Assembly (NCBI RefSeq): GCF_000203815.1
Contig: NW_004457695.1
Coordinates: 3,346,054-3,410,053 of the forward strand
Source of the DNA: Cavenderia fasciculata
Taxonomy: Eukaryota; Evosea; Eumycetozoa; Acytosteliales; Cavenderiaceae
Length of the DNA: 64,000 nucleotides
Reading direction: 5' to 3'
Under the pieces are notes generated by a model. The model made no database searches. It saw only the letters and a program-made list of their open reading frames with translations, and was not told the origin of the DNA. Numbering within the stretch: position 1 is the stretch's first letter; each line of letters opens with the position of its first letter. Made by a program: the position numbers and the translations under genes. Positions 2,025 through 27,648 of the stretch are shown piece after piece.

Positions 2025-3720
2025 TTATGAAAAATAATAAATAGATGGGGGTAGGAAACTATTGGGCCCTCCTCCATCACCTTTCCATTCGTTCGTGTAG
2101 AAATAATCTTTTAATGATTTTGATTTGAGGAAATAGTCTAATTGGTTGATTGGACATTGCCGGTAATCTTGGTCAACGACCAAGTATTGTACTGTATCAC
2201 TTTGCAATAATGCGTTGTATAGATTGGTAGCATACTTTCCAAACATGTTACCAGATACATCCAACACCTTGATTGACTTGTTTTGTTGGAATGCATGTTC
2301 CAACTCTTCACACCACTCCAAATCATTGTCACTTTTTAATGGTTTTAGAGTTTGCTATCATCTTGGAGAATGATGGTACGTATTTGGGATGCATCGTCTT
2401 TTGTGTCAATACCATAGTGGTGATGGTTTGGTTGAGAGAAATCTCATCAAAGAATTGTGATGAGATGATATGAGAGAGATACGACAGACCAAGATATTCA
2501 ATGGTAGCATTGTTTTCCCAAAGTGATCTAAAAGGTATTTCGAAAATTGGTATTGTCAGAATAGGACAGTCGATTGCACTAAAGATTTGACAACGATAAT
2601 AATCTTTGAGCAAGAGTCTTTTGAGAGTGGTGTTGTCTTGTAACCCGTCGCACAAAATAGCCCATTCCTCTCCATCAAACGTTTCAACTTGTTCATCATC
2701 AGGATGGTAGGTTTCAATGGTATCGTAGATTAAAGCACCACCATCCTCCTCGCTTGGAATGATTAAAACTGAAACTTCGAGTGATTCCAATTTTGAATCT
2801 TCCAGTGTCACCAAATCATACAATTCCATCAAATCGACATAGTCATCGTTCAATGTGATGTGCTTGGTGCGTTGTTGTCGACTAAACATATCTTTGTATT
2901 GGCAGTGTACTTGAATTAGTTGGCCACTTTGAAATAAACAGACATAGCTTGGTTTGAGGTGATCGAGGTTGTCGGGATAATTAGTCTCATCGAAAATCGA
3001 GTCTCTTATATGTACGACCATTGTACTATGATTTGGAGTGAACCCATGCATTTCGGTAAAGTCTTTTTCTGCAAGCTCCAACAACATCGTCGACTTTAAG
3101 TTTGGTACCAATACGAGTATTTGGTTGATTGTCTTTGATACATATTCTAACCATATACCACCTCTTGTTTTAATATTGATAGTATCTAGGTGTGGTAATA
3201 GATCAATGATCTCTTTGCAAATTGATGGAGTGATCTCGTCGACAACATACGTGTAATCCTTAACATCATCATCATAATTTACCAACAAACAACTCCAATG
3301 TATCTTTTGAATATTACAAAGTTGATAGATAGAGTGTTGTTGTTGCTGAATGAATGGTATAAAGATATCCTTTGTAAACCTTCCGATGATAGTCAATTCT
3401 GTTCTTGTTCCTCTGACCACTTGAAACCACCATTTCGATACCAATGCCAAGTTGATCAATTGATTATGACCACGGTGTTGATAGTGAGGTAGTTCTCCTG
3501 TATACAACAATTTACATATCTCACTATTTGATCTAATCGGTGTGTTTGATAATATATTATTACGTCTTGGTCGATCATAATATGGAGCACGTTCAGGTTC
3601 TTCACAAGAATCTGATATAGTTCGACTACATATATGATCATTTGTGTAGTTGATCAATTTGTTAATGATTATTGATTGTACATATAATGGTAAAAATGAA
3701 GAAGAAGATAAAGTATTCAT
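2025..3720 (-). CDS. F-box/LRR-like protein with a frame break
   Basis: Predicted adaptor of the dictyostelid F-box/leucine-rich family. The N-terminal segment LPLYVQSIIINKLI followed by LALVSKWWFQVV fits a divergent F-box, which would bind Skp1 in an SCF ubiquitin ligase. The remainder has LRR-like pieces such as IKVLDVSGN and IEYLGLSYL. It reads as two consecutive frames: 3720-2329 (463 codons) and then the last ~100 codons to 2025. The total of 1696 nt is one more than a multiple of three. Dropping one A from either the A4 run (2343-2346 on the plus strand TTTT) or the A5 run (2333-2337) joins them into one LRR continuing as KSDNDLEWCEELEHAF. It may be a sequencing error or a young pseudogene. 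The F-box call is by pattern only. Confidence 0.6.
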
Positions 3721-3809
3721 TATTATCGAATAAAAAAAATTTAGTAGTAGTTGAAGAACCCTAAATGTTTTTAAAAATATATATATATATTTGGTTTATT
3801 AAATTCTTT

Positions 3810-5032
3810 TTATTTATTTTCACCAATGAAAGAACCCATCTTACAATAATCACCTGGTTGAACGTTAAATTGGAAATCCTTTGATTCAAAAATTAAAACG
3901 ACGGTGCTGCCTAGATGGAATTGACCGATTTCTTGTCCACGTGATTGGGGAATGTCCTCGGCATAGTCGCTGTCATAAGAATGGCTGCCTACACCATTCC
4001 ATGAGAAATATTCCAAGTTTTTGCATCTAAAGTCTCTAGTGATCTGATTGGTCTGAGTGACATGATCGAAATTAAGAGAGATTGATCCTACATTGTATGC
4101 TCCAACCGCTGTCAATGAATAGAATCCTTGTTCCCAATCACCAGACAATACAATTCTTTCATTCAATGCAAATAAACTTGGAATTAATTTTAAAAATGGT
4201 TTATTCACTGGGAATAATGTACCTAAAAAAAGAAAGAAAATTAATTAAATATTAGTATTTATATATAAATATATATATATTGATTTGTTTTGTTGGTTTT
4301 ATGCTTACCTGGGAAATGAGATCTTTTTTTAATTACCCAATCTTCAGAAGAATGAATACGATGATAATCACCTGGACTGAGATATAATATACAATGATAT
4401 AATTTACTATTTGGATTTTTTAATAGAGTGAATGGATCGCAACCCAAGAAATGGTTGAGAGAATATGTTACACCTTTGATTTGTTCGACTGTATCGCTGA
4501 CCACCTCGCCACACGCCAATACACGTCCGTCTACAGGACTGATCATCCCCGATTCACAGATGGGACGACAACCATCTTTGATGGGACGTGAGAAAAACTC
4601 GGCCAACGATGGGTAGCTTTCGAGTGGTGCAGGTATTTCATCCATATTGCATCTAAACAATTTGGCCCATGCTCCATAAATCGGACGTCTCAAAACAACC
4701 GGTAAACGACGACGATTAAGTAATCCCCACATATATGACATTGTTACTCCTAATAAATCCCATCTAACTATTTGTGGTGGTTTTGATATTGGTACTATAA
4801 AAAAAGGAATAGAATATATTTATTAATAACTTGATTGTGATTATGATTATGATTGATTTTATGGTTTACCTTTTTTTAAAACCTTTTTAGAAAAGTTATG
4901 TGATGATTTAAATAAAGATTTGGGAATAACTTTTAATAATTTAAGAGGGTTTCTAAAATAAGATGATGATGATGATGAAGTAGTTGATGCTGATGGTGTA
5001 GCTACTGTTGTTGGTGTAACTTTTCTAGTCAT
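3810..5032 (-). CDS. psd: Phosphatidylserine decarboxylase proenzyme
   Basis: Converts phosphatidylserine to phosphatidylethanolamine. Three exons, 4870-5032, 4309-4794 and 3810-4222, total 1062 nt, giving 353 residues. The C-terminal motif LGST (Ser about residue 322) is the self-cleavage site that in this family splits the chain and creates the pyruvoyl cofactor on the small subunit. Other family marks are SYPSLAEFFSRPIK, ISPVDGRVLACGE, SPGDYHRIHS and GAYNVGSI. The N-terminus is Ser/Thr-rich with basic residues and no acids for the first ~50 positions, compatible with mitochondrial import, as for type I enzymes, although no clear membrane anchor is obvious beyond short hydrophobic stretches. 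It is tandem with the F-box-like gene and divergent from the alpha-galactosidase gene. Confidence 0.95.
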
Positions 5033-19639: not shown

Positions 19640-21600
19640 ATGAGAGCATTTCTTGTAAAAATGTTGGTTCTATTACCAAATACAATACTACAAATAATAT
19701 TTTATTATGTTGGACAAGATCTTGGCGAAAGTAGTAGTAGTAGGGTATCGGTGAAAGATGCTAAAAAGAAAGAATATATCCTATTCTACCGTAGACGCGA
19801 AAAGCTGGTCAAAGAGGTGATCTACACAACTCCAGCACTCAATCAACTGTGGTTGTATGATACGTGCAAGAGGTTTAGATCGCTTAGAACATCACTGCAT
19901 CTAGGAGGGATTGAGTTTAGTCAAGTGACAGGCATACGTTGGTCGTTGTTGGACCGATATGATCGTGTCCAAGTAACCTATTATCACCTGTCTACATTGC
20001 TTGCAGCATTGAAAAGACTGAATGATGTGCACGGACAAAACCACCCAATCTACTTGCACACTATAGAAATACTCAACATTCATAATCCCAAATTTAAAGT
20101 ACCGTCTCTGCCAAGCACCAGTATCACATCATTGACACTTGGTGGATGCCCGTTCACAGTGTTCCCATCACTTGACCATCTCGTGCACCTAAAGACGCTT
20201 GATATAAGATGTATCAAGTTGGAGTATCTTGGTCCCCTTCCACCAAATCTCGAGGTGTTTAGTTGTTGTGTAAAGTCATTTGCAATGGCCAATAACCCAG
20301 CTGAATATGCCGTCCTCCCAAGTGGTCTTGTCAAACTACAACTAAACGATTACAACGATGATATTGATCGTTTGCAACTAGACAAGTTGCAATCTCTAAA
20401 ATACCTTGTCTTGCGTGGCGATCAAACATGTCTGCGATCAGACTGCCTAGGTTCGATAAAGGTTGTAGAGACATTGGTTTTGGGAGGTGAGATTACAACA
20501 CTTGACACGTGCACCAAGCTACCCAATACACTGACACGGTTGGTTACTCAAAGTCCAGAGTTTAAAATGGACCTGTTGATACCGACCTTGCCAAAGATCT
20601 AAATGAATTGGTTCTCTTTACCGATTCATTGACCCCAACACTCGGAGGTCCACATCCCCTTCCAATCAACATTACGCAAATGTTTCTTTTCACTAGTGGT
20701 GTTGTCAATGCGTCTGTACTGCCTCGTAATCTAAAGAAACTCAATATCGATAGTGTCATCATGAATACTCCACTCTATATGGACGGTGTTTTACCAAACT
20801 CGATTGTTTCAATCAATCTCGGCAAATGTTGTTCACAAATACAATTTGGAAAGGATGGTACCGGTGTCAAGTTACCATCTTCACTATTGACACTAGATCT
20901 TGGAGCAGAATTCAATTGTCCAATCCCTCCACACACCTTACCAAAAGGATTAAAGAAATTGTATATGCAAGAATACAATTATCCACTTGACATGGACACA
21001 CTTCCAGACTCTATTCAACATCTTCAATTCGGTAGAGGATACACACACAAAATTAGACATTGTCATTTACCACAATCTCTCACCTACTTGGAACTACCAG
21101 CTTCATTTGATCAACCATTAGAAGAAGGGTTATTCCCAGAAGGGCTAAAGACTCTTTATCTAGGGTATAAATTTAATCATCCAATCCATCCATCTCACTT
21201 TCCAACATCACTCAAAAAACTAGTCCTCTCCTTTATGTTTAATCAACCAATTCACAATAATGATAGTAAAGAATCATTGTTACCACCTGTAGAAATATTA
21301 GAGTTTGGAACAAATTTTGATCAACCTTTTGGTAGTTGCAAAGTAGATTCAAATGACAACAAAAACAACAAGGTTGTCATATCCTTTTTACCAAGGTCAA
21401 TAAGATGGTTGTCAATTGGTAAATACAATCAACCAATTGAAAAGGGATATATTACAGATAATATAACAATTCTTCATGTCGATGACCCTTTTGCAAGATT
21501 TACCAATTCAATCTATTATCCATCCATTAAATATTGGTTACCAAATTCAACAATATTATATTTTAATAATAAAGTTCGACATGTACAAGTAATAAAGTAA
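19640..21600 (+). CDS. F-box/FNIP-repeat protein with a frame break
   Basis: Dictyostelid FNIP-repeat (IP22) protein, an LRR-related solenoid family that is greatly expanded in these amoebae. The N-terminus LPNTILQIIFYYV is F-box-like. The first frame, 19640-20602, ends LLIPTLPKI; the second carries the FNIP array from about 20600 to 21600. Repeats such as LGAEFNCPIPPHTLPKGLKKL, LPASFDQPLEEGLFPEGL, LGYKFNHPIHPSHFPTSL and LSFMFNQPI have a period near 22 residues. Total length 1961 nt is one short of a multiple of three. One extra A at AAA 20593-20595 would read LPKDLNELVLF and fuse both frames. Likely role is protein binding, perhaps as a ubiquitin-ligase substrate receptor; that is inference from the F-box-like start. 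Confidence 0.72.
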
Positions 21601-21676
21601 AGTAAAGTAAAGTAAAGTAAAGTAAAGTAAAGTAAAGTAAAGTAAAGTAAAGTAAAGTAAAGTAAAGTAAAGTAAA
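21594..21676. repeat. AAAGT pentanucleotide microsatellite overlapping a stop codon
   Basis: About 16 uninterrupted copies of AAAGT. The array begins inside the last sense codons of the FNIP gene, whose TAA stop (21598-21600) is part of the repeat. Confidence 0.9.
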
Positions 21677-21868
21677 TTGTAATTATTTAGAGGATGTTGT
21701 TATTTCATTATTGAATAGAATAACAAAAAAGGTGTTTAATAAATAAGATTTAATAAATAATGTTCAAAAGTTATAACACATGACATGTCGAATTGTCAAG
21801 TTAATATAATTATAACCTTGGATAGTGAATGTTAATCGGGGAGGTATAACCTTGGACTTTGCAAATCT

Positions 21869-22920
21869 TTAAATTTTAACATAGGTGGCTGCAAAATACA
21901 ACATGTAACAATTATCATTGGTTGCACTAAAAAAAAAGATAGATAGTCAGTATTAGAATAGAGTTGTAGTTGTCAATATTAGTTAATTTGATTATATAGC
22001 AAACATACTTGAGATAAATATGGCCTTCTTGACCCCAAGTTGAACCATATGAATTACGGATGATCCAATAGTCTTGTGGTTTGTTGTATCCAACTAGAAC
22101 AACACCATGATTAACTGAAGCTCTTTGTTGTCTACATGAATAAATACCACTTCTATACGATTGGAATCCAGCATCTGCAAATAGTGGGACAATTAATGGA
22201 CCACTCTTTAAGGCTTCGATAAAGTGTTCCTTGGAAGCTGATGTAGTGTCGTATTGACCAGTCCATCTGAATCTTGGTTCTGTAGTATTAGTACAGTTGG
22301 CCTGTTGCACAGCGGTATATGGAATATCATTTTCATAGGCAATACCAACTGGTTGCATCAATTGTAAAGCTGACATTGGCCATCCACCATTACACCCATT
22401 ATTATAACAATTCAAAACATTTTGTTCTGATAAATCAATATCATTACCTGTTTTTATCTTGTAATATCTAAAATCGAAATGATAAATGAATAAATTAAAA
22501 TTTTTAATCCAATGATTAAAAAGGGAATATGTATGTATGTATGTAGATATTTACATTTCAAGGTTTGATAATGCACTAAAGATATAACATGAACCACAGT
22601 TACGTTGGTTTTTAATACGGGTAGACATATTTCTCCAATCTGTTGATTGGCCCGACGGGTCTACTACAGGGGCACTAGTTGGCTTGGGTGGTGTCGTGGG
22701 AGCAGGAGTAGTCGTTGGAGTTGGCGTGTTGGTTGGAGTAGGAGTGGTAGTTGGAAGAGGGACACCTTCTGGATTATAAGGGAACAATCCTGGGAACCCA
22801 CCTCTTGGGAAATAGTTACATGTAATATAGTGAGTATTTCCACATAATTTATGTACGCAAGCAAATGAAGTTGTAAGATTCCAAATTCCCTATAAAATAG
22901 ATAATAATAGAATAGAAATA

Positions 22921-22959
<39 letters not shown>

Positions 22960-23378
22960 ATACTTTTGTTTTTTTTTTAGATTTATAGAAACATACAAAA
23001 TTATGAACACTAATTTGACCCTTGGCACAAGTCTTTGTTGACCAGTTATAGTAAACACTGGTTTCACCAACTTGATTCAACATTGTGGTAATGTTTAAAT
23101 TGGGGGCCATTTGAATACGGTATTCACCAACGACACCTAATTTTGATTTGGGTGAAAAGGACATGTCACACTTGTCCACATGGGCTTGGAGTTCTTCGGC
23201 CATGGTCACATTCCAAACTAGAGGATTGATAGCTCCATTTGGAGTGGGGGTTGGGGTTTGTTCTCCAAGACTTATGTTGATTGATGATGGCTGTTTGTTC
23301 ATCTGGTGTCAACTCTGAAGATACCGGTAGTATCACCACTGCACAAATTACTAGTAAAATAATAGTGAGGATATTCAT
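21869..23378 (-). CDS. Secreted CAP/SCP domain fused to papain-like cysteine protease, copy 1
   Basis: Four exons: 22997-23378, 22555-22889, 22009-22467 and 21869-21926. Order: signal peptide (LTIILLVICAVVILPVSS), CAP/SCP-like domain (AIINQHKSWRTNP, PLVWNVTMAEELQAHVDKC, then FACVHKLCGNTHYITCNYFPRG), Pro/Thr linker, and a C1A protease domain. Catalytic Cys lies in NCGSCYIFSAL, His in SVNHGVVLVGY and Asn in WIIRNSYGSTWG; the usual CW after the nucleophile is CY. There is no ERFNIN propeptide. Exon lengths total 1234 nt, one too many. The surplus base falls in the C5 run read from GGGGG at 23246-23250, where the signal-peptide frame and the CAP frame meet. Without it, 410 residues align with copy 2 throughout. 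It is either an assembly error or a young pseudogene. Confidence 0.82.
22921..22961. repeat. AAAT tetranucleotide repeat in intron
   Basis: About ten tandem AAAT units in the first intron of protease copy 1. Confidence 0.8.
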
Positions 23379-24398
23379 CCTATGTTAAAAAAAAAGAAAT
23401 AAATAAATAAATAAATAAAGAAGAGAGCAATAGAGATAAAAAGAGAATAAAATTTTAACTAGAGGTTGAATAAAAGGATAAAATAAAGAGTGATGCAACA
23501 GGATTCGTGTGATCGTCATCTGACAATCATTCATTCTCAAGCCCTGATCAAATCTAGACTTTCTCAAACGAGAATCATCGATTCATTCAAATAAACCTAT
23601 GGTGAAGGAATTCCTGTCGAGCTAGATTGTTTGGGTTGGTACTGCCCAAATACCACCTGATACTTTGAATTGAAAAGAATCTTTGTCACCTGATTTAGAA
23701 CGACGCCCCATTAGCAAGAACCCCCAAGACAAGGTCGACCTTTGCAAATTAATTGTTAATTAATTAACAACAACGGTTTGTCGAGATTCCATGGATGGGT
23801 GTTGGGATCAAAGAACAGATAGATATTTACCAAAGAATTTATGTAGATTTTTTTAAAATCGTTGTTGTTGGTCATAGAACATCTGCAAAGATAGAATAAT
23901 ATGATTAGTCACTCCTTTTCTCTATTATCTCTTACAACTTGTTACAATAGTATTACTTACGATCGTAATCGTATTGGTTGTGTCAGGACTATCAAATCTT
24001 TGCCTTTTGGTGAATGAGAATAAACAACTATCTTGTTCTGTTTATCCCTGAGAAGGAGATTGTTAGTTATCTATTCTATCCATTGAATTGATGTATTTGA
24101 ACGAATCAATAAATACAAATATACTTTTTTTAAAAATTTGAACACCCAGAGAGCATCCAACAATCAACAATAAAGAAAACATGTTAAATTATTTAGGAGG
24201 TATTATTTCTAGTTGTTGTCATCAACCAAGTATGGTTTTAAATGATTGATGACATTAATAATTTATTAGAATAGAAATACATGTTTGGGTTTGAAATAAA
24301 TAATAAATAAATAAATAAATAATAGGATAGGTTGGTGGGTTCTTAAATAATAAATAACTGTTGTTTTTTTGTCAAATAGATTATGATTGATCTAATAT
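23379..24398. other. Intergenic between the two CAP-protease genes
   Basis: Upstream region of protease copy 1 and downstream of copy 2. It contains a block shared with the copy 2 upstream region (23653-23684). A possible short open frame at 24181-24229 starts MLNYLGGIISSCC and ends at a GTATGG that could be a donor, but it cannot be extended convincingly. Confidence 0.5.
23653..23684 (-). promoter_or_regulatory. Upstream block shared with protease copy 2
   Basis: On the plus strand, CCACCT, a few bases, TAC, then TTGAATTGAAAAGAATCTT (23665-23683). Nearly the same block is at 26194-26223. Both lie about 300-340 bp upstream of a CAP-protease start codon, in the same orientation. Surrounding sequence is not alike, so this is a candidate conserved promoter element. 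Confidence 0.4.
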
Positions 24399-25874
24399 TT
24401 AAATTGTAACATAAGAACCAGCATACTTCATCATGTTACATCTATCATTGGCAGCACTAAGGTAAATGTATCCACCAACTGATCCCCATGAAGTACCTAT
24501 ATATTTTAAAAAAAGAGAATTAATTAATAATTATTTCAAAAGATTTATAAATGTATGTATGTTGTTTGTATGTATGTTTGTATATTTACCCCAAGAATTT
24601 TTAATGATCCAAGCATCCTTGGAAGCATCATAACCAGTGAGAACTACGGCATGATTGACACCAGTGTATTGTTCTGGACAAGAGTAAACACCAGATCCAT
24701 AGGATTGGAATCCACCGTCGGCAAAGAGAGCGACTACGACTGGACCAGCCTTTAAGGCATCGAGGAAATGTTGTTTGGTGACACCAGCCATATTGGCTTG
24801 ACTTGTCCATCTGAATCTTGGTTGGGTAGAGTTGGAACAGGTGGCTTGTTTGACGGCAGTGTATGGAAGAGTGTTTTCATACTCTACACCAACTGGTTGC
24901 ATCAATTGGAAGACAGTCATTGGCCATCCACCATTACAACCATTGGAATAACAATTCAAAACATTTTGTTCTGATAAATCAATATCCAAACCAGTCTTTA
25001 TCTTGTTTCTTGCTTCGGCGACGGCAAGAGCTCCGAAAATGTAACAACTGCCACAACCACCTTGATTTCTAACTGGGGTAGACTTGGATCTCCAATCGAT
25101 TGAACCTGGGGCTGGAGCAGAGGTTGGAGCTGGAGTTGGAGTGGTAGTTGGCTTTGGTGTGGTGGTTGGAGTTGGAGTAGTAGTTGGCTTGGGTGTAGTG
25201 GTTGGAGTTGGAGTGTTGGTTGGAGTTGGAGTGGTAGTTGGAGCTGGGATCGATGATGGAGTGTATGGCCAGACACCAGAGAAACCACCTCTTGGGAAAT
25301 AATCACACATAATATAATGTGATCCGTTACATTGTTTGTATCCACATGCAAATGATGTAGTAGTATTCCAAACAGCCTAAAAAAATAAAAATAAAAGAAT
25401 AGAAACAAAATAAATAATAATTAATAAACATATATTTATAAATGTGATTATTTGTTTGTTTTTGTTGTTTGTTTTTGTTATTTTAGTTTCACATACATAA
25501 TTGTGGAGACAACTACCAGGAGAACAAGCCTTGGTTGACCAGTTAAAGTAGCTACGAGTAGCATTTAAAAAGTTTAACATGCTTGGTACATTGAGAGATG
25601 GTGACATGGAGATACGGAACTCACCTACGATACCTTGAAGAGCCGATGGACTGAATCTACCGTCACACTTGTTCATGTGAGCTTGGAGAGTTGTAGCGAT
25701 GGTAGTATTCCAAACCAATGGTTTGATGGTACCCTTGGCAGCTGGGGATGGGTTGGATCTCCAAGCATTGTGTTGGTTAAAGATGGTAGTTTGATCGGCC
25801 GACGACAATTGTGATGATACCATCACAACAGAGTACAATGCAAAAATTAAAAGTGAAATAAATAATGATTTCAT
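24399..25874 (-). CDS. Secreted CAP/SCP domain fused to papain-like cysteine protease, copy 2
   Basis: Three exons, 25497-25874, 24590-25376 and 24399-24496, total 1263 nt, 420 residues, with an intact frame. Signal peptide (LFISLLIFALYSVVMVSS), then a CAP/SCP-like domain (TIFNQHNAWRSNP, PLVWNTTIATTLQAHMNKC, then TTSFACGYKQCNGSHYIMC). A Thr/Pro linker of about 45 residues leads to a C1A protease domain. Catalytic residues are present: GGCGSCYIFGAL (Cys), GVNHAVVLTGY (His), WIIKNSWGTSWGSVGG (Asn). NCYSNGCNGGWP is the usual disulphide region. The I29 propeptide that normally keeps papain enzymes inactive is absent, the CAP domain standing in its place. Intron positions in the protease half differ from copy 1. 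Likely a secreted or lysosomal protease; activation mechanism unknown. A similar domain order may occur in D. discoideum gamete-specific cysteine proteases, but I could not check this. Confidence 0.88.
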
Positions 25875-26877
25875 TCTATAAATATAAATATATAAATATC
25901 TCCTAACGTTTTATAAATAAACAAATAGAGTTGTGTTGTTGAAATAAATAAATAATAGTTGTTGTTGAAGAGAAATATAAATAAAGAAGAGTGGATTGAA
26001 GAGAGAGAGAGAGGGGGAGATGGTTGATGGTTGATGATGGATTGATCGTTGGTTGATAGTTTGACTAATTTAAATTAAAAATCATTCATCGGGGTTGCTT
26101 TGAAGGGTTTGTGATGGTCGATTCTAATTATTATAACACCTATGATGATACCCGATAGAGTTGGTCAACTAGCAGTTGATGAGTAGCACCAAGCCACCTC
26201 CTACCTTGAATTGAAAGAATCTTCTAAATCAAGCGCAGCCCGTTCGAGCGTCGAGGCGAACAGACACTTAATTAATTAACTCTCTTCGAAGCCATCGAGT
26301 TTTAGCTTCAAATAATCGAGATCTAGACCGATATTTTATAAATTTTATAAAGTCTGCAAGACACTGTTGAGGGGTGAGAGGAGGGCTGGTTTTTTTTAAA
26401 ACAATGGTGGGTTTGTCGTTTGGAATGTTGATGGCAAGCCATCGAAAAGAAGGGGTTGTTCTCCCCCTACCTCGAGATACTTTGCAGTTTTTAAAATAAT
26501 TATCACAAAAAACCATCCATTCATCTGTCAAATTGACCCAACCAACAATAATTAAACCTGCAGAACAAGTCAAGTCATTTGAAGTGTTTATCTATCATCA
26601 TCATCATCCACCCCATTGGTAACACATCATTCATTCGATCAATATAGATATCTATACTTCTCAACCAACTTCCTTTATTCTCTTTTTTTATTCATTCTTT
26701 TAATCATCTATCTCTCATCGTCATCCATCCATCCATCCATCGATATCTATTTAAAATATTAATTATTTATTTTAAATATCTTATTTCATTCCAACAAAAA
26801 ACAATATATACAATACATACATAAATAATTTTAAGCTTTTAAAAACAGATAATATATACAAATAATAATAATATAAA
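25875..26877. other. Head-to-head intergenic between protease copy 2 and the I29 gene
   Basis: Separates divergent starts at 25874 and 26878, so promoters of the protease and the inhibitor-domain gene are both here. It holds the shared block at 26194-26223 and AG-rich DNA near 26000-26020. The 101-codon minus-strand frame at 26268-26573 has no family resemblance or signal and is not called. Confidence 0.55.
26194..26223 (-). promoter_or_regulatory. Upstream block shared with protease copy 1
   Basis: Plus-strand CCACCTCCTAC followed by TTGAATTGAAAGAATCTT (26206-26223), matching the block at 23653-23684 with one indel in the A run and few substitutions. It lies about 340 bp upstream of the copy 2 start. 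Confidence 0.4.
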
Positions 26878-27648
26878 ATGATGATAAAATCAATTTTATT
26901 AACACTATGTGTTGTAATGATGATGTATGTATCATCGTCAACTGCTCAAGACCCATCGGATGCCCAACTCTTTGCTGCCTTTATCAATTGGGCTCAAAAC
27001 TATAATGTTCAATACGATAGCAGTGAATTGCAAGCCAAGTTTGCTGCCTGGAAGGCCAACGCCCAATTCATTGCCAACTACAATGCCAACAACAATGTCG
27101 CTGATATGGCTATTGACAATTCTGCCCACCCCGCTGCTGCCCAAGAAGCTGTCCTCGGTGAACTCAATATTAATGCTGGTGAAGTTGTCACTTTTCCAAG
27201 TGAATCTGTTTCTCAAAGTAAGACCAAAAAAAGAAAACAAAAAAGAAATATTCAGAATAATTATTAATATTAACTATTTCCTTTTTAATTTTTTATAGTG
27301 AACTTTAATCAATTTAGTGATTTAACATTCCAAGAGTTTGAAATTCAATACACTGGAGGTGTACCAGATGCCAATGCTGTAATTCCAGGTGCTGTTGCTG
27401 CTGGAGCTGTTCTTTCTACCGGTGCTATTATTGGTATTGCTGTTGGTGGTGCTGCTGCCGTTGCTGGTGTAACTGGTGCTTCTGTTGCTATCATCAAAAA
27501 GAAGAGAGCCGCTAAAAAGACTGTAGTTGCCATGGAGGAAGTTGCTCCACAAAAATCATCTGCACCAAAGGTTGATATCTTCAAGTTTGAAAACCCACAT
27601 CACTCTATCACTGCCAGAGCTGTTGCCATTACAAGTAATTCAAATTAA
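26878..27648 (+). CDS. Stand-alone I29 cathepsin-propeptide domain on a membrane-anchored protein
   Basis: Exons 26878-27217 and 27299-27648 give 690 nt, 229 residues. A signal peptide (ILLTLCVVMMMYVSSSTA) is followed by an I29 inhibitor domain without any protease. The ERFNIN helix pattern is complete (E-3-K-3-W-2-N-3-I-3-N in ELQAKFAAWKANAQFIANYN, with Lys for Arg and Trp for Phe). After the intron comes MNFNQFSDLTFQEF, the GNFD-type motif. Then a Gly/Ala-rich membrane segment (GAIIGIAVGGAAAVAGVTGA), a basic stop-transfer KKKR and a tail of about 60 residues. This predicts a type I protein displaying the inhibitor fold in the lumen or outside. Stand-alone I29 proteins elsewhere (CTLA-2, crammer type) inhibit cathepsins. 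Its neighbour is a papain enzyme lacking this domain. Confidence 0.82.

What the first reader, a model, noticed from the sequence alone, without database searches (positions are those of the whole stretch)
21869..27648. Split protease/propeptide locus: two CAP-papain fusions beside a membrane-anchored I29 domain
Papain-family enzymes normally carry an I29 propeptide that folds and blocks the protease. Here two tandem secreted proteases keep Cys/His/Asn but have a CAP domain and a Thr/Pro linker instead. The adjacent divergent gene encodes just the I29 fold (complete ERFNIN spacing and a NxFxD motif) on a signal peptide plus membrane anchor. The arrangement suggests a trans-acting, membrane-tethered inhibitor or chaperone for these or other cathepsins, with the CAP domain as a targeting or regulatory module.
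Basis: partly seen in the sequence, partly recalled or inferred. Interest (0 to 1): 0.78.

Follow-up and report, generated by a model that had tools for sequence, protein, structure and literature searches.

The report
Membrane propeptide paired with secreted protease
In a social amoeba, a secreted enzyme appears to lack its built-in safety catch, and a separate membrane protein that looks just like that catch is encoded head-to-head beside it at six places in the genome, so the two are probably a matched pair; no experiment has shown this.

Summary
The window carries two tandem CAP–papain (CAP-C1) genes and, head-to-head, an I29 propeptide gene with signal peptide, one membrane span and a cytosolic tail. 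The arrangement recurs: six I29-membrane (I29-TM) genes were found in the genome, all head-to-head (466–1023 bp) with a CAP-C1 gene, while neighbouring ORFs share one weak hit. The seven CAP-C1 copies with catalytic residues sit at these six loci; the eighth, without the catalytic Cys, is alone. None of 16 cathepsins with their own I29 has an I29-TM neighbour. All six I29-TM proteins keep the ERFNIN pattern, N-x-F/Y, an invariant Gly and a tail motif (S-I-T-A/S-R). Distances within the two families correlate (r = 0.87; 3 of 720 permutations as high), as co-duplication alone would also give. Best reading: a split zymogen whose propeptide acts in trans as a membrane-tethered folding, inhibition and sorting partner. 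Binding, co-expression and other species were not testable. CAP:C1A fusions in slime molds are in print; my searches found no membrane-anchored I29 partner.

The parts
26878..27648 (+). I29-TM gene: signal peptide, I29 propeptide domain with insert, one membrane span, cytosolic tail (exons 26878-27217 and 27299-27648; 229 aa)
27025..27084 (+). ERFNIN helix ELQAKFAAWKANAQFIANYN (aa 50-69)
   Evidence: pattern met in 6 of 6 paralogues
27307..27360 (+). NQFSDL ... YTGG (aa 117-134): NxFxD motif and the segment that in propeptides reaches the active-site cleft; TG invariant in 6 of 6
27409..27498 (+). membrane span rich in Ala/Gly/Ile (about aa 151-180), followed by Lys/Arg cluster
   Evidence: hydropathy; sequence
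27571..27618 (+). conserved cytosolic tail motif VDIFKFENPHHSITAR (aa 205-220)
   Evidence: S, I, T, R invariant in 6 of 6
25875..26877 (.). shared intergenic (divergent promoter) region, 1003 bp; TTAATTAATTAA at 26268 and AATTGAAAGAAT at 26209
   Evidence: motifs found post hoc
24399..25874 (-). CAP-C1 gene A (exons 25874-25497, 25376-24590, 24496-24399; 420 aa; signal peptide, CAP, Thr/Pro linker, C1 with Gln, Cys, His, Asn)
25299..25778 (-). CAP domain of gene A (aa 33-152, with intron inside)
   Evidence: PF00188, 29 bits, cut-off 21.1
24420..25109 (-). C1 papain domain of gene A (aa 216-414, with intron inside)
   Evidence: PF00112, 170.9 bits
21869..23378 (-). CAP-C1 gene B, tandem copy with a frame break inside about 23262-23237; exons after the break 23236-22997, 22889-22555, 22467-22009, 21926-21869
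   Evidence: read as separate pieces, not mended

Best explanation
A split zymogen. The CAP-C1 proteases are cathepsin-L-like papains without an N-terminal I29 propeptide; a CAP domain and, in most copies, a Thr/Pro-rich linker stand in its place. The propeptide function is supplied in trans by a type I membrane protein encoded head-to-head with each active protease. In the secretory pathway the I29 ectodomain would bind its neighbour's C1 domain at the usual propeptide site, help it fold and cover the active site. The membrane span and the conserved cytosolic tail would hold and sort the silent complex. Acidification or cleavage of the I29 domain would then release active CAP-C1 protease. Shown: genes, domains, membrane-protein features, conserved residues, linkage at six loci, correlated divergence, dN well below dS. 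Inferred: binding, folding help, inhibition, sorting, release.
For: The six I29-TM genes found in the genome are all head-to-head with CAP-C1 genes (intergenic 466-1023 bp). The seven CAP-C1 copies that keep C/H/N are at those six loci (one of them, gene B, has the frame break); the one with Cys replaced (RDCSAAYAF, L036) has no I29 beside it. None of 16 cathepsin genes with their own I29 has an I29-TM gene beside it. Neighbouring ORFs of 70 aa or more are otherwise not shared among the loci (1 weak hit, 145 ORFs). The C1 domain of CAP-C1 is closest to cathepsin L/K/S/V and plant papain chains in the 60 rows shown of 184 and falls outside the cathepsin B/X-like group. ERFNIN pattern and N-x-[FY]-S in 6 of 6, helix-1 Phe and Trp invariant; the invariant TG aligns with the YTGG of pro-bromelain and by eye with the M-N-G-F-Q active-site segment of procathepsin L (PMC4089206, passages). 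Distance matrices correlate, r = 0.87, 3 of 720 permutations as high. NG86 dN/dS about 0.2 for both partners of the closest pair of loci. Propeptides work in trans: falcipain-2 prodomain (PMC2682653, passages); CTLA-2alpha both inhibits and stabilises cathepsin L; PDB 3f75 holds propeptide and protease as separate chains.
Against: No binding, expression or complex prediction was possible. Correlated distances and retained linkage also follow from duplication of a two-gene block, so the six loci are not independent; the correlation rests largely on the close pairs 30/37 and 25/26 and the long 27 branch. The I29-TM tree has one well-supported branch, and the place of the window genes in the CAP-C1 tree differs. 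The unrooted C1 tree does not place CAP-C1 inside the I29-bearing cathepsins, so loss of a former cis I29 is not shown. The 34-44 aa insert and the Asp change in 3 of 6 could have altered binding. Whether I29-TM exists in other dictyostelids is unknown. The copy without catalytic Cys and without a partner is a single case.
Confidence: 0.6

Rival explanations
1. Receptor and ligand: I29-TM is a cell-surface or phagosomal receptor whose I29 domain recognises the secreted CAP-C1 protease, of self or of other cells, and signals or drives uptake through the conserved tail. Folding help is not needed.
For: The tail motif is a well conserved stretch outside the I29 core, and between I29_37 and I29_30 the tail's NG86 dN is as low as the ectodomain's (0.148 versus 0.150). 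Small-xxx-small spacing in the span, seen by eye in the sequences, would allow dimers. Entamoeba CPBF proteins, type I in layout, are described as receptors for cysteine proteases and other hydrolases (PMC3285589, passages).
Against: SITAR-coding DNA is no more frequent than its reversed control genome-wide (26 versus 27; 5 of the 26 are I29-TM genes, the other 21 were not inspected), so there is no sign of a tail shared widely with other receptors. No polymorphism data.
Confidence: 0.2
2. General membrane-anchored inhibitor: I29-TM protects the cell or its membranes from cathepsin-L-type enzymes at large, like CTLA-2, crammer or BCPI with an anchor; the link to CAP-C1 is historical.
For: PMC2682653 states that many cathepsin-L-type propeptides inhibit related proteases in trans (passages); CTLA-2alpha, crammer and BCPI are free-standing inhibitors.
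Against: The I29-TM genes found are linked only to C1 genes that lack their own I29, and stayed linked while flanks changed.
Confidence: 0.12
3. Linkage without function: one ancestral two-gene block was duplicated several times and stayed together because head-to-head genes share a promoter.
For: Copies are related by descent; some shared elements in the intergenic regions (post hoc).
Against: The partner is present at each locus with a catalytic CAP-C1 and absent at the one Cys-less copy; purifying selection on ectodomain and tail.
Confidence: 0.08

Closest known systems
Soluble propeptide-like inhibitors of family I29 (CTLA-2alpha, crammer, BCPI)
   Same: I29 domain encoded apart from any protease; act in trans; CTLA-2alpha also stabilises cathepsin L (PMC4089206, abstract and passages)
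   Different: Here one membrane span, conserved cytosolic tail, insert in the domain, head-to-head link to a protease that lacks its own I29; that the known ones have no membrane span is recalled
Falcipain-2 prodomain
   Same: ERFNIN/GNFD prodomain on a membrane span; inhibits as a separate piece (PMC2682653, abstract and passages)
   Different: There in cis with the protease and type II; here a separate gene and type I
CAP:C1A proteins of slime molds and C1A:CAP proteins of Aphanomyces
   Same: Same fused domains; CAP:C1A order reported for Planoprotostelium fungivorum, Dictyostelium purpureum and Polysphondylium pallidum (PMC10084794, passages)
   Different: The term I29 does not occur in that main text, so no I29 partner gene is described there
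Entamoeba CPBF receptors
   Same: Signal peptide, one span near the C-terminus, short tail; family described as receptors for cysteine proteases or other hydrolases (PMC3285589, passages)
   Different: End in a YxxL-type motif; in I29-TM Pfam gives I29 as the only family in all six; no linkage to cargo genes in the passages read
PDB 3f75, cathepsin L protease with propeptide as separate chains
   Same: I29 chain matched by the family profile; the same entry holds a C1 chain
   Different: That both chains come from one Toxoplasma gene and form a complex is recalled, from no call

Membership tests
I29 propeptide-like inhibitors | Pfam PF08246 match | tested here: met
   6 of 6 members match at E up to 1, best 2.8e-11; window copy 41.4 bits over cut-off 24.4
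I29 propeptide-like inhibitors | ERFNIN spacing | tested here: met
   6 of 6 match [EQ]x3[KR]x3[FWY]x2Nx3[IV]x3N
I29 propeptide-like inhibitors | GxNxFxD motif | tested here: inconclusive
   N-x-[FY]-S in 6 of 6; Asp in 3 of 6, Gly or Gln in the others
I29 propeptide-like inhibitors | inhibits C1A peptidases | not testable with these tools
   needs protein
C1A papain peptidases | fold profile PF00112 and catalytic Cys/His/Asn | tested here: met
   PF00112 in 8 of 8; Cys, His, Asn in 7 of 8, Cys lost in CC_36
C1A papain peptidases | cis propeptide (I29 for L-type) | tested here: not met
   no I29 among the families matched by 8 of 8 CAP-C1 proteins at E up to 1; gene B was scanned only after its frame break
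CAP superfamily | PF00188 match | tested here: met
   8 of 8 at E up to 1, best 1.3e-10
CAP superfamily | metal-binding His/Glu tetrad (recalled) | tested here: inconclusive
   alignment shows no invariant His or Glu in the CAP part (gene B lacks its N-terminal part there); no structure made
CPBF receptors | C-terminal YxxPhi motif | tested here: not met
   none of 6 tails ends so, read by eye
Two-gene split zymogen (proposed) | propeptide gene linked to propeptide-less protease | tested here: met
   6 of 6 I29-TM genes found
Two-gene split zymogen (proposed) | the two proteins bind | not testable with these tools
   by its description the structure tool takes one chain, and only proteins that the DNA gives letter for letter, which spliced proteins are not; not tried

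The most novel reading that the evidence does not exclude
Six co-duplicated, matched pairs in which a membrane propeptide serves as receptor for a secreted propeptide-less papain: each protease is recognised by its own I29 receptor, which passes the signal or cargo through a conserved SITAR tail. This would be a private protease-receptor code built from a split zymogen.
Probability: 0.2. Interest if true: 0.85.

Novelty: new variant of a known kind. Interest (0 to 1): 0.64.

Why it matters
Cathepsin-L-type enzymes are taught as zymogens whose propeptide is part of the same chain. A natural two-gene version with a membrane-anchored propeptide would show that folding, silencing and sorting of a papain can be moved onto a separate receptor. 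It gives six natural pairs, plus one CAP-C1 copy without the catalytic Cys as a control, on which propeptide specificity and sorting could be tested directly in an amoeba.

Tried and rejected
Rejected: the tail motif as a general receptor tail, because SITAR-coding DNA occurs 26 times against 27 for the reversed pattern; 21 of the 26 were not inspected one by one. Rejected: a resemblance of the I29 insert to the pro-bromelain segment after YTGG (−0.7 bits), as noise. Rejected: C9:33809 and C5:1686835 as further I29-TM genes. The first is a cathepsin gene whose I29 and C1 parts lie about 3.5 kb apart with transposase-like ORFs between them (by eye). The second is I29 plus a long Ser-rich stretch with no Pfam C1.

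Led nowhere: a scan of prokaryote genomes with the I29-TM alignment, which used one peptide pattern, found 40 pattern matches and no relative. Paper searches for an I29 protein with a membrane span found nothing relevant: (I29, cysteine protease, Dictyostelium, propeptide) 0 papers; (inhibitor I29, transmembrane) 9 papers, seen as listing, passages of one read. Other searches, seen as listings: 1 paper; 6; 12 of 81 listed; 12 of 23 listed; 10 of 35 listed; passages of one listed paper on papain-like families were read. A look at the tgrB1/tgrC1 recognition genes as an analogue gave nothing usable on gene layout. Structure prediction was not used, because the tool folds one chain and accepts only unspliced translations, so the decisive complex could not be made. 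The I29-TM tree resolves only the 30/37 pair, and the CAP-C1 branching order differs, so congruent branching is not claimed. Intergenic motifs are post hoc.
Full report
Setting. The window is part of a 31.0 Mb genome in 21 contigs. AT-rich DNA and a neighbouring gene with FNIP-like repeats (by eye, recalled motif) point to a social amoeba. The size fits Cavenderia fasciculata, but that is recalled, not tested. The search tool holds no relatives of this genome.

What is there. On the minus strand lie two tandem genes for secreted proteins with a CAP domain, a Thr/Pro linker and a C1 papain domain: gene A at 25874–24399 and gene B at 23378–21869. On the plus strand, 1003 bp from gene A's start, lies a gene of two exons (26878–27217, 27299–27648). 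It encodes a signal peptide, an I29 propeptide domain, one hydrophobic span and a basic-then-conserved tail. Gene A and the part of gene B after its break keep the catalytic Gln, Cys, His and Asn. Gene B changes frame within about 23262–23237. I read the part after the break on its own; it keeps the conserved residues, and A versus B gives NG86 dN 0.315, dS 1.248, so the break is probably recent or a sequence error.

Genome census. PF08246 gives 22 six-frame matches. By my reading against, 16 lie in genes with a C1 domain downstream, 4 are stand-alone I29 genes with a membrane span, one (C9:33809) is a cathepsin interrupted by foreign-looking DNA, and one (C5:1686835, L029) is an I29 protein without a recognisable C1. 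Two more I29-membrane genes (L030 and L037) were not in that list; an intron cuts their ERFNIN helix. They were seen in the flanks of C1 matches and confirmed by protein search. Searches with two family members each returned the same six genes and otherwise weaker matches to cathepsin propeptides and chance hits. The tool scores only its best candidates, so six is the number found, not a proven total. C1, CAP and protein searches give eight CAP-C1 genes.

Linkage. The six I29-TM genes are each head-to-head with a CAP-C1 gene: window; L025 (C5:262 kb); L026 (C5:2383 kb); L027 (C7:1419 kb); L030 (C13:295 kb); L037 (C14:937 kb). Intergenic lengths are 1003, 767, 877, 1023, 589 and 466 bp. The seven CAP-C1 copies with catalytic residues are at these six loci (two in the window, one of them gene B with its frame break). 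The eighth, L036 (C5:1728 kb), reads RDCSAAYAF where the others read CG[SG]C, so its catalytic Cys is gone, and no I29 lies beside it. None of the 16 cathepsin genes with their own I29 has an I29-TM gene beside it. Counting loci, the partner is at 6 of 7 CAP-C1 loci and at 0 of about 23 other C1 loci by my reading. Because the pairs arose by duplication these are not independent draws. But a comparison of 145 flanking ORFs of 70 aa or more from the six loci and L036 found one weak shared hit (28.7% over 87 aa, E 2.8e-4), so the pair has stayed together while its surroundings changed.

The I29-TM proteins. The other five share 30–44% identity with the window copy. All six match the ERFNIN pattern and keep N-x-F/Y-S, E-F and T-G, and the Phe and Trp of the first helix. 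The Asp of NxFxD is kept in 3 of 6. The profile matches pro-bromelain (6u7d) in two stretches, ERFNIN and N-x-F…YTGG. From the last N of ERFNIN to the N of NxF is 46–56 positions in the I29-TM family and 12 in pro-bromelain, an insert of 34–44. By eye the invariant Gly lines up with the Gly of the M-N-G-F-Q segment that PMC4089206 (passages) names as the part of procathepsin L that meets the active site. The hydropathy peak of the span begins 17–28 residues later in five proteins and 6 residues later in L026. The falcipain-2 prodomain keeps its potency when cut just after its GNFD motif (PMC2682653, passages), so an anchor at this place need not spoil binding. Tails end in a shared motif around I/V-[ND]-[IV]-[FM]…S-I-T-[AS]-R. 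SITAR-coding DNA is not enriched in the genome (26 versus 27 control; 5 of the 26 are I29-TM genes, the rest not inspected).

The proteases. The C1 domain of CAP-C1 is nearest to cathepsin L, K, S and V and plant papain chains in the 60 rows shown of 184. In a tree of 29 C1 domains of this genome CAP-C1 forms one group (96/94), separate from the cathepsin B/X-like group without I29 (99/95). The tree is unrooted and does not put CAP-C1 inside the I29-bearing cathepsins, so it does not show that CAP-C1 lost a former I29; CC_36 is a long branch. The 16 rows called cis-I29 there include L035, whose propeptide was judged by eye, and lack C5:713372. CAP-C1 proteases look like L-type enzymes without the I29 domain that L-type enzymes normally carry. 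PMC10380794 (passages) derives cathepsins L, F, H and the 26/29 kDa peptidases from one I29-bearing progenitor.

Correlated divergence. Distances within the I29-TM family and within the partner CAP-C1 family correlate with r = 0.87; 3 of 720 relabellings do as well, the true one included. Co-duplication alone would give this, and the value rests largely on the close 30/37 and 25/26 pairs and the long 27 branch. The I29-TM tree has one starred branch (30/37). In the CAP-C1 trees the window genes group differently. The most recent pair of loci (L030/L037) has NG86 dN/dS of 0.178/0.887 for I29-TM and 0.194/1.106 for CAP-C1, so both partners look constrained. In the intergenic regions TTAATTAATTAA occurs in 4 of 6 plus upstream of gene B, against 0.11 per kb in non-ORF background; AATTGAAAGAAT-like elements occur in the window, upstream of gene B, and in L026 and L027. 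These were found by looking and are only a hint of shared control.

Mechanism. I favour a split zymogen: the membrane I29 protein folds, silences and sorts its neighbour's protease. Steps shown are anatomy, conservation and linkage; steps inferred are binding, folding help, inhibition, sorting and release. Evidence that separate propeptides can inhibit or stabilise comes from CTLA-2alpha, crammer and BCPI and falcipain-2. A receptor-ligand reading is the main rival. The copy without catalytic Cys and without a partner fits either role, but is a single case.

Known and new. CAP:C1A proteins in slime molds are in print (PMC10084794, passages), so the fusion is not new. Soluble I29 inhibitors and membrane-anchored cis prodomains are known. 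I found no membrane-anchored, stand-alone I29 protein in the paper searches, seen mostly as listings of which some were partial; the library lacks most subscription journals. I therefore call it a new variant of a known kind.

Limits. One genome only; no expression data; no complex prediction; gene models are spliced by hand from GT–AG sites and homology.

Noticed in passing
window 23262-23237: Frame break inside the CAP part of gene B, next to a run of C; the rest of the gene is open and conserved.
   Followed up: partly
L036:1702-3271 (C5:1727.7-1729.3 kb): CAP-C1 paralogue with the catalytic Cys replaced and a linker without the Thr/Pro repeats; a likely pseudoenzyme.
   Followed up: partly
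L029:2780-4147 (C5:1686835): I29 domain followed by a long Ser-rich stretch with only C1-like remnants by eye; Pfam finds I29 alone.
   Followed up: partly
L028 (C9:30.3-33.9 kb): Cathepsin gene whose I29 and C1 parts are separated by about 3.5 kb that holds transposase-like ORFs (by eye).
   Followed up: no
L034:5065-5382: Partial tandem copy of a cathepsin-B-like exon beside the gene at 3105-4153 (by eye).
   Followed up: no
window 21600-21679: Run of a 5-base repeat (TTTAC type on the minus strand) just beyond the 3' end of gene B.
   Followed up: no
window 26209-26279, 23378-24398, L025, L026, L027, L030, L037 intergenic regions: TTAATTAATTAA palindrome or AATTGAAAGAAT-like box in the divergent intergenic regions, found post hoc.
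   Followed up: partly
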